Assembly: GCF_001571045.1 (NCBI RefSeq) | Contig: NZ_BCSV01000002.1 | Location: forward strand, 1-64,000 | Length of the DNA: 64,000 nucleotides | From: Curtobacterium ammoniigenes NBRC 101786 | GTDB lineage: Bacteria > Actinomycetota > Actinomycetes > Actinomycetales > Microbacteriaceae | Direction of reading: 5' to 3' | In this document: in pieces, positions 13,867 through 14,322 of the stretch | How positions within the stretch are numbered: the first letter of the stretch is position 1 | Layout of the letters: every line of letters begins with the position of its first letter | The notes under the pieces: generated by a model | Databases searched by the model: none | What the model was told of the DNA's origin: nothing | The model's input: the letters and a program-made list of their open reading frames with translations, nothing else | Program-made: the position numbers and the translations under genes

Positions 13867-13975
13867 GGCGGGCGCCTCGCTCTCCTCGCACTCAGGATGA
13901 CCACGACCGGTCTCGCTTACGTTGGTGCCCGTAGTCGGGACCACTGCGCCGGAATCCCGACCGCGGGGACAACAG

Positions 13976-14009
13976 TGAAGCCCGCCACCTGGCAGGGTGG
14001 CGGGCTTCA
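13976..14009. other. Strong 14-bp hairpin in the flgE/flbD gap
   Basis: TGAAGCCCGCCACC (13976-13989) and GGTGGCGGGCTTCA (13996-14009) are perfect complements around a 6-nt loop. It lies between the flbD promoter and a small plus-strand ORF. The rest of 13867-14158 holds no gene; it also has CCAAGC/GCTTGG at 14051-14068 and two copies of GTAGTCGGGA (near 13931 and 14076). The hairpin could end a transcript on either strand or belong to a structured leader RNA. Confidence 0.7.
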
Positions 14010-14158
14010 GTTGGCCTTCCGAGTGGAGGACCAGGGGCCGCAACGAGACCCCAAGCTCTACCGCTTGGTTCCAGTGTAGTCGGGATGACCCCGGCTCCGC
14101 GCCCCTGGTGCACTGCTTCTCGTGTCCGCCGGCGCCGGACCCTGAAGGAGGTGCCCCC

Positions 14159-14269
14159 TTGCCAAACGACAAGGACACCCCGCCCAGGCAGCAGAGGCCG
14201 TGGATCGGCATCGCAACACTTGCGGTGACCTTTGCACGGTTCCTACTCGACCTGATGCGCGAACGGTAA
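14159..14269 (+). CDS. Small putative membrane peptide, antisense to the flagellar operon
   Basis: A 36-codon ORF starting TTG, preceded by a near-perfect ribosome binding site (AAGGAGG, 7 nt away) that is stronger than most in this window. The peptide has a charged/Pro-rich start (PNDKDTPPRQQRP), a hydrophobic stretch (WIGIATLAVTFARFLLDL) and a basic end (MRER). It is followed within 11 bp by a terminator-like hairpin. It stands alone on the plus strand between flgE and flbD. Small hydrophobic peptides with basic ends and structured leaders are typical of type I toxins and holin-like peptides, but I do not recognise a family, and the function is open. Confidence 0.55.
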   Translation: MPNDKDTPPRQQRPWIGIATLAVTFARFLLDLMRER

Positions 14270-14279
14270 CCAGGGAAGG

Positions 14280-14308
14280 CGGCCCCGCACTTCGACAGTG
14301 CGGGGCCG
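14280..14308. terminator. 11-bp hairpin after the small peptide gene and flgE
   Basis: CGGCCCCGCAC (14280-14290) and GTGCGGGGCCG (14298-14308) pair perfectly around TTCGACA. It lies 11 bp past the stop of the small peptide gene and 14 bp past the stop of flgE, so it can serve both strands. Only TT follows on the plus strand. Confidence 0.7.
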
Positions 14309-14322
14309 TTCGCGCCCCGTGC

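What the first reader, a model, noticed from the sequence alone, without database searches (positions are those of the whole stretch)
13867..14310. Antisense small membrane peptide with strong Shine-Dalgarno and hairpins inside the flagellar cluster
In the flgE/flbD gap a TTG-start 36-residue peptide (charged, hydrophobic, basic end) is preceded by AAGGAGG and a leader with a 14-bp hairpin, a second small hairpin and two GTAGTCGGGA copies, and is followed by an 11-bp hairpin. It is the only plus-strand gene between 3.2 and 28 kb. This is the architecture of a type I toxin with structured leader, or of a small regulator of the flagellar membrane machinery. I know no named family for it.
Basis: partly seen in the sequence, partly recalled or inferred. 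Interest (0 to 1): 0.6.

Follow-up and report, generated by a model that had tools for sequence, protein, structure and literature searches.

The report
Conserved toxin-like peptide with switching RNA
Between two flagellar genes lies a real but so far unnamed tiny gene, shared by most of its relatives in the genus, that makes a 36-residue membrane-type peptide behind a long folded RNA leader with two mutually exclusive folds, and it looks most like a self-inhibiting toxin kept off by RNA.

Summary
The 36-aa frame (window 14159-14269, +) has relatives in 43 of 66 genomes of the window's genus, Curtobacterium by inference from named records. Copies lie in several unrelated neighbourhoods, so it is not a flagellar gene.

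The ~240-nt leader is a structured RNA without an Rfam match. Helices P2, P3 and P5 covary. One segment pairs either nearby or far away; the far pairing clearly covaries, the near one less. The first hairpin's loop is complementary to the loop of the hairpin over the Shine-Dalgarno in the 50 leaders compared. A minus-strand TAnnnT stands at one aligned place in 45 of 48 leaders, a candidate antisense promoter.

Of 70 strong leader loci in the genus, 60 carry the peptide and 10 do not, most through deletions; one peptide has no leader.

[quoted passage not shown] Toxicity and antisense RNA are untested, so it is not filed as a member. Rivals: a harmless leader-controlled membrane peptide, or an RNA that is the main product.

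The parts
13918..13923 (+). candidate -10 of the sense promoter (TACGTT; TAGGCT-like in relatives)
   Evidence: TAnnnT on the plus strand at this alignment column in 40 of 47 leaders; no other plus-strand column exceeds 1
13928..13967 (+). P1 hairpin at the 5' end of the leader; loop word CGCCGG at 13947-13952
   Evidence: fold of the unit; complementary (5 bp or more) to the loop of the Shine-Dalgarno hairpin in the 50 leaders compared, one of them (L108) read by eye; both sides changed in two diverged leaders
13967..14078 (+). conserved leader core (P2, P3, motif TCCGAGTGG at 14018-14026, switch segment, P5)
   Evidence: covariance model R1 E 5.3e-22 (the window is in the model); covariation count
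13976..14009 (+). P3, perfect 14-bp hairpin
   Evidence: repeat finder; in 44 leaders 97.6% of cells paired, 6 of 14 pairs with changes on both sides
14030..14038 (+). switch segment A (ACCAGGGGC), which can pair with B or with C
   Evidence: I10; native A:C duplex better than the mean of swapped ones in 45 of 48 leaders, A:B in 36 of 45
14048..14052 (+). segment B, near partner of A; only about 4 G-C pairs in the window copy
   Evidence: relatives: GGGGAA/TTCCCC, GGGATG/CATCCC, GGGAC/GTCCC; window read by eye
14051..14068 (+). P5 hairpin (CCAAGC/GCTTGG)
   Evidence: 98.6% of cells paired in 44 leaders, but only 1 of 5 pairs changed on both sides
14073..14078 (-). candidate -10 (TACACT) of an antisense RNA; no good -35
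   Evidence: minus-strand TAnnnT at this column in 45 of 48 leaders, next best column 3; 47 of 48 have one somewhere in a 38-base stretch there; the E. coli-type promoter scan found none on either strand
14074..14100 (+). P6 hairpin
   Evidence: native arms -17.1 against -10.2 kcal/mol swapped, better in 42 of 45
14101..14109 (+). segment C (GCCCCTGGT), far partner of A
14116..14151 (+). hairpin over the Shine-Dalgarno; loop word CCGGCG at 14129-14134; SD AAGGAGG at 14145-14151
   Evidence: at least 60% of the SD core paired in the local fold of 42 of 46 copies; covariation of its outer arms not detectable (15 of 29)
14159..14269 (+). 36-aa peptide, TTG start
   Evidence: frame +0 has the most conservative replacements; helix 15-35 in the AlphaFold2 model, mean pLDDT 77.6, single sequence
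14280..14308 (+). terminator-type hairpin, 12 bp, few T after it
   Evidence: a GC-rich hairpin follows the stop in most of L009-L036 (read by eye)

Best explanation
A free-standing gene, held by most genomes of the genus, encodes a 36-residue peptide with a charged N-terminus and one amphipathic helix that ends in basic residues. Its ~240-nt leader hides the Shine-Dalgarno in a hairpin and can take two folds: an early near one (A:B) and a later long-range one (A:C), with the P1 loop touching the loop of the Shine-Dalgarno hairpin. I propose that it works like a type I toxin locus: the peptide acts at the cytoplasmic membrane and is harmful when made freely; the nascent RNA is held untranslatable, the A:C/P1-loop state is the translatable one, and an antisense RNA started at the conserved minus-strand -10 covers A, B, the TCCGAGTGG motif and P3 and so keeps it off. 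Shown by computation: conservation of frame and leader, covariation of P2/P3/P6 and A:C (A:B and P5 weaker), conserved loop-loop match, predicted cover of the Shine-Dalgarno, conserved TAnnnT boxes on both strands, more loss of the frame than of the leader. Inferred: membrane action, toxicity, the antisense RNA, which fold is on.
For: Peptide in 43 of 66 genus genomes, 1-3 per genome, and in G343, G376 and G437 (two other genera), weakly G145, among 398 family genomes. Leader core ahead of it, 74-87 nt apart, in 60 of 70 strong leader loci. P2/P3/P5: covariation score 0.223 against 0.120 shuffled (0 of 500) and at most 0.095 slid. A:C native -22.3 against -16.4 kcal/mol swapped, better in 45 of 48; A:B -12.4 against -10.9, 36 of 45. 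P6 better in 42 of 45. Loop-loop match in 50 of 50, changed on both sides in L047 and L241. Minus-strand TAnnnT 45 of 48 at one column, other columns at most 3. Ten leaders without the peptide, one peptide without leader (two-sided binomial p 0.012); eight of the ten show deletions of about 100-240 bp over the SD and/or frame. Helix 15-35; 11-residue hydrophobic moment 0.79-0.87 in five peptides, 0.55 in the most diverged. Analogue: timP mRNA has mutually exclusive folds, a stem-loop over the SD and a pseudoknot needed for translation (PMC11228461; abstract and part 1 of Results read).
Against: No transcript, toxicity or antisense RNA is measured. No convincing -35: none stands out in the aligned antisense upstream regions and an E. 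coli-type scan of the window found no promoter on either strand. The minus-strand A and TA could be kept for the sense RNA instead, since the middle bases pair within P6. P3 has no U-run after it on the minus strand (read), so the antisense terminator is a guess. Covariation of the arms around the SD (15 of 29) and of an idea that TCCGAGTGG frees the SD (19 of 40) was not seen. An unrestricted scan of column pairs put three P3 pairs first but mixed many non-pairing column pairs below them, so shared ancestry is a strong background. pN/pS is about 0.9: protein-level constraint is modest and synonymous sites are held too. G010 keeps a peptide copy with no leader, odd for a toxin. Of the ten peptide-less copies, four lack the sense -10 and three the antisense -10, and in a further one the latter lies at the deletion joint, so they are not simply 'antitoxin kept'. 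The binomial test treats loci as independent. G343 has a second leader (E 1.2e-12) without the peptide and upstream of a long plus-strand frame for another protein, which fits a riboswitch-like rival.
Confidence: 0.48

Rival explanations
1. A non-toxic regulatory membrane peptide under a switching leader: the RNA senses a signal (a metabolite, ion, temperature or a trans-acting RNA) and turns translation of a small membrane-protein regulator on or off. No antisense RNA is involved.
For: Alternative folds and a covered SD fit any translational switch; nearly invariant words (CGCCGG, TCCGAGTGG) could be a binding site; a leaderless peptide copy survives in G010; one diverged leader in G343 stands upstream of a long plus-strand frame that reads like a methyltransferase to me, without a family search.
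Against: In the genus no leader was seen ahead of another gene on its strand: behind the ten peptide-less copies the nearest coding-like frames were mostly on the other strand. The G343 leader is cut off right after the core, without segment C or an SD hairpin by eye. Biased loss of the frame; the minus-strand TAnnnT.
Confidence: 0.3
2. The RNA is the main product: a stand-alone small RNA, with the peptide as a second function that can be lost.
For: Ten of 70 leaders lack the peptide yet keep the core; synonymous sites in the frame are constrained, codons 19-23 nearly fixed at DNA level.
Against: The remnants were found by their core, so keeping the core is partly ascertainment; four of ten have lost the sense -10; the frame is conserved with conservative replacements.
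Confidence: 0.14
3. A regulator of the flagellar membrane machinery.
For: The window copy sits between flbD and flgE.
Against: Genus copies lie in several other neighbourhoods.
Confidence: 0.02
4. A chance frame and chance hairpins in an intergenic gap.
For: High G+C gives long frames and hairpins easily.
Against: Conservation of frame, spacing and structure across the genus.
Confidence: 0.01

Closest known systems
timP/TimR type I toxin-antitoxin of enterobacteria (PMC11228461)
   Same: small membrane peptide; long structured 5' leader; stem-loop over the Shine-Dalgarno; long-range loop pairing; mutually exclusive folds of the full-length RNA
   Different: no sequence relation found (Rfam scans gave no family for the leader); there the antitoxin is encoded divergently (PMC8167048, passage seen), here the candidate promoter lies inside the leader; toxicity unknown here
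hok/Sok type I toxin-antitoxin (recalled, partly seen in PMC11228461)
   Same: antisense promoter candidate inside the leader; metastable early hairpin logic
   Different: an upstream coupled frame was not looked for here; the hok toxin is about 50 residues (recalled)
tisB/IstR-1 (recalled)
   Same: short amphipathic cationic single-helix peptide, inert structured leader
   Different: the antitoxin there is divergent and binds a standby site; no LexA box was looked for here
aapA/IsoA of Helicobacter pylori (PMC6733600, abstract and outline seen)
   Same: co-transcriptional SD-covering hairpins, one of them within the frame; several copies per genome (copy number recalled)
   Different: different peptide, phylum and leader
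Fst/Ldr peptides (PMC7472228, search listing only)
   Same: small hydrophobic peptides with chromosomal loci
   Different: no Pfam or NCBIfam match of our peptides above cut-off

Membership tests
type I toxin-antitoxin system | small hydrophobic peptide, usually one helix | tested here: met
   36 aa, helix 15-35 (single-sequence model); Kyte-Doolittle 19-residue maximum 1.24-1.79 in five peptides, 2.06 in the most diverged
type I toxin-antitoxin system | peptide is toxic when overproduced | not testable with these tools
   no expression data; biased loss of the frame is only suggestive
type I toxin-antitoxin system | antisense RNA overlapping or targeting the toxin mRNA | tested here: inconclusive
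   conserved minus-strand TAnnnT in 45 of 48 leaders, but no -35, no terminator with a U-run, no transcript
type I toxin-antitoxin system | antitoxin RNA represses toxin translation | not testable with these tools
   needs bench work
type I toxin-antitoxin system | leader structure that hides the ribosome site (common, not universal) | tested here: met
   SD core mostly paired in 42 of 46 local folds, a prediction; its arms show no covariation
riboswitch (any Rfam class) | match to a known aptamer family | tested here: not met
   window at gathering threshold: 0; 6 loci at E<=1: 7 sub-threshold matches, best E 0.0096 to sar RNA
riboswitch (any Rfam class) | same aptamer ahead of unrelated genes | tested here: inconclusive
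   66 genus and 398 family genomes searched with the leader model; genus leaders stand before this peptide or are remnants with, mostly, opposite-strand frames behind; one diverged, truncated leader in G343 precedes a long plus-strand frame; weak matches outside the genus were not read except one
Pfam / NCBIfam / PHROGs / PADLOC protein family | profile match | tested here: not met
   nothing above the curated cut-offs of Pfam; best Pfam E 0.021 (DUF3382, below cut-off, 4 of 23 members); best PHROG E 0.095; NCBIfam (4 peptides) and PADLOC none
mobile or phage-borne gene | relatives on phages, plasmids or viral contigs | tested here: not met
   phages: four 14-residue matches of E 6; viral contigs none confirmed; plasmids none at E<=1

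The most novel reading that the evidence does not exclude
A chromosomal RNA-controlled toxin family native to one actinobacterial family (Microbacteriaceae), whose leader is a new structured RNA class that switches between a near and a long-range helix and is locked by a loop-loop contact to the ribosome-site hairpin, with its antitoxin promoter embedded in the same leader.
Probability: 0.4. Interest if true: 0.72.

Novelty: new member of a known kind. Interest (0 to 1): 0.6.

Why it matters
Type I systems are known mostly from enterobacteria, Firmicutes and Helicobacter (recalled); in the papers searched here none turned up for this family (open-access library only, top listings read). A multicopy, covarying case in a high-G+C Gram-positive genus, with natural remnants, would give a new model for bistable toxin mRNAs. 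Even if the peptide is harmless, an unnamed gene and RNA family held by most genomes of a common plant- and soil-associated genus is worth a name.

Tried and rejected
Leads that failed. tRNA-like reading of the leader: ARAGORN found none in the window. Known RNA family: none. The GTAGTCGGGA repeat: window-only. Idea that TCCGAGTGG pairs with the anti-Shine-Dalgarno arm to free the SD: native no better than swapped, 19 of 40. RNAalifold pairing of the P1 loop with TCCGAGTGG: nearly invariant columns, no double changes, not used. Weak leader hits outside the genus with E 1e-7 to 1e-4: the one read, G511 (L248), is a terminator-like hairpin beside what looks to me like a cold-shock gene; the others were not read. 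L037 is a chance match, dropped. Sense -35/operator: a palindrome-like word (TGGTACTGGAGTATCA type) precedes the -10 in several copies, not analysed.

Rows dropped: L002/L009 from leader alignments (no leader); L106 (about 20-nt insertion), L046, L047 (too diverged) and L030 (antisense box not matched) from A3. The relatives used for the 48 leaders were picked with ATG starts and a peptide pattern, plus L018 and L030. In one search I used only matches with E<=1e-15; matches from 8.6e-7 upwards, many of them on the other strand of the palindromic P3, were not counted; five weak places (L221-L225) were read and are not leaders. In some searches only frames of 36 codons were used, 36 of 47. In A2 the L018 row, whose stop is lost, was cut by me at 38 residues.

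Full report
What is there. The TTG-start frame at 14159-14269 (+) encodes 36 residues, preceded by AAGGAGG at 14145-14151, a leader with a perfect 14-bp hairpin, and followed by a perfect 12-bp hairpin. It lies between FlbD and FlgE genes on the other strand.

It is a conserved gene. In a first search of 59 relatives the good matches (E below 0.005) all lay in the same genus; L009-L036 show ATG-start peptides, mostly of 36-37 residues, with an SD and, as a rule, a following hairpin. A profile of 23 peptides (A2: M1, D4, W15, A19, V23, R27, R34 invariant) found 61 places in 43 of 66 genus genomes at E<=1e-3. In 398 family genomes the convincing matches outside the genus were G343 and G376 (genus g26) and G437 (g56), and weakly G145 (g26). 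G145 holds a second leader with a more diverged 34-codon GTG-start frame, which the profile missed. Among 113 stretches with a leader DNA pattern, those followed by the peptide were Curtobacterium records, 'Microbacteriaceae bacterium' PS02332 and PS02333, and Frigoribacterium sp. Leaf186. That the window's genus is Curtobacterium is inferred: genomes placed in it have contigs of 3840454 and 3973750 bases, equal to CP121450.1 and CP018783.1. Phages, plasmids and viral contigs gave nothing real.

It is a coding frame. In 36 frames of 36 codons, frame +0 has no stops and the most conservative replacements (mean BLOSUM62 -0.23 against -0.64 to -1.22 in the five other frames), though the frames were chosen as open and frame +1 has slightly more synonymous codon changes. 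Against a simple protein story, pooled pN/pS is 0.91 and median dN/dS 0.86 over 555 pairs; codons 19-23 are nearly fixed as DNA, so the RNA is constrained inside the frame too.

The leader is a structured RNA. In 44 leaders, P2, P3 and P5 have 93.2% of cells paired, 10 pairs with changes on both sides, covariation 0.223 (shuffles 0.120 +- 0.006, 0 of 500 as high; slid versions at most 0.095); the number of further pair types is not above the shuffles (191 of 500). P3 carries most of it. P6: native arms -17.1, swapped -10.2 kcal/mol, better in 42 of 45. The swap test asks whether a leader's own partner fits better than those of other leaders; relatedness is not corrected for. An unrestricted scan of column pairs ranks three P3 pairs first, with many non-pairing pairs below.

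It has two exclusive helices. Segment A pairs near (B) or far (C). Examples: GGGGAA/TTCCCC near with GCCAGGGG/CCCCTGGC far; GGGATG/CATCCC with AGCCAGGGATGC/GCATCCCTGGCT. Native A:C beats the mean of swaps in 45 of 48 and is in the best tenth in 28; A:B does so in 36 of 45 but is in the best tenth in only 7, so A:B is the weaker claim. In the window the far helix is ACCAGGGGC/GCCCCTGGT and the near one only about four G-C pairs.

A loop contact. The P1 loop CGCCGG and the word CCGGCG in the SD hairpin occur together in 46 of 50 leaders; two diverged ones changed both sides and stay complementary (L047 GGTCGG/CCGACC, L241 CGCCGAC/GTCGGCG) and the other two keep a 5-bp match (L030; L108 by eye). 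Equal lengths arise in 15-19% of shuffles of those two SD regions, so the argument rests on homologous position, not length.

Promoter boxes. Over 242 columns tested per strand, only one plus-strand column (13918; 40 of 47) and one minus-strand column (14073; 45 of 48) match TAnnnT in more than three leaders. Ten different middle triplets occur at each. No convincing -35 was seen for the antisense box, and the sigma-70 scan of the window found no promoter. The middle triplet is also part of P6, so an RNA reason for the conserved A and TA is possible.

Loss of the frame. With the core model R1, 70 strong loci (E<=1e-15) lie in the 66 genus genomes: 60 have the peptide 74-87 nt further on, 10 do not; one peptide (G010) has no leader (47 genomes hold at least one of the two). 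Compared with the best-matching intact copy, L211, L212, L213, L214, L215, L216, L217 and L218 show deletions (103, 210, 124, 101, 108, 148+95, 171 and 129 bp) that take out the SD and/or part or all of the frame; L219 and L220 are less clear, and L214 matches its intact partner only loosely. L211, L217 and L220 also lack the stretch with the sense -10. By pattern, the sense box is present in 6 of the 10 and the antisense box in 7, one of these (L216) at the deletion joint. Three more frames look damaged: L030 (C-terminal frame change), L018 (stop lost), L026 (two prolines in the helix). Outside the genus, G062 and G343 hold leaders without the peptide; that of G343 is cut off after the core and stands upstream of a long plus-strand frame.

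Neighbourhoods. Flanking genes differ between groups of copies: lactone oxidase/FAD, HSDR_N, ABC permease, aldo/keto reductase, a DUF1345-like gene (below the Pfam cut-off), flagellar genes in the window. I grouped these by eye and tested six flanking genes.

How it probably works. The proposed order is: near hairpins and the SD hairpin form first (off); A:C and the P1-loop contact form later; an antisense RNA over 13976-14066 would trap A, B and the TCCGAGTGG motif. Which fold is on is inferred. The nearest studied logic is timP, where mutually exclusive folds and a pseudoknot control a membrane toxin (PMC11228461: abstract and part 1 of Results read), and aapA3 with SD-covering metastable hairpins (PMC6733600: abstract and outline). 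Passages of the review PMC8167048 were seen. Since toxicity and antisense RNA are untested, I describe it as working like a type I toxin locus and do not file it as one.

Novelty. No match above cut-off in Pfam, none in NCBIfam or PADLOC, only weak ones in PHROGs, none in Rfam at the gathering threshold. Eight paper searches listed nothing on such a locus in Curtobacterium or Microbacteriaceae; they cover an open-access library, show only the top rows (for example 15 of 30 and 8 of 15), and the papers listed were not read except as stated.

Noticed in passing
window 14213-14227 and homologous codons 19-23 in relatives: A short stretch inside the frame (GCGAGCTTGCTCGTG in many relatives) is nearly fixed as DNA and could form a small hairpin; the window has a different word that could also fold.
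   Followed up: partly
L246 (G010:C1:834169-834276): A peptide copy close to the window's (58% identity) with an SD-like word and a terminator-type hairpin but no leader, near a divergent frame.
   Followed up: partly
L241, about 1218-1322 (G145): A good leader followed by a much diverged 34-codon GTG-start frame with the same W...D..R layout, missed by the peptide profile.
   Followed up: partly
L243, core at 1001-1109 (G343:C1:1580774-1580882): A diverged leader without the peptide, cut off after the core and upstream of a long plus-strand frame that reads like a methyltransferase (no family search made).
   Followed up: partly
upstream of the sense -10 in several loci, e.g. L031, L032, L011: Palindrome-like word of the type TGGTACTGGAGTATCA shortly before the -10, possibly an operator; absent from the window copy by eye.
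   Followed up: no
L027, L032, L033, L034, L036: One group of copies lies beside a divergent gene that begins MEFEERLAALATKVQ; the one tested (L027) has an HSDR_N domain (type I restriction R subunit N-terminus).
   Followed up: partly
L106 / L226 (G463:C21:388774-388906): A copy with an intact-looking frame but about 20 extra bases inserted just after TCCGAGTGG, in the switch segment.
   Followed up: no
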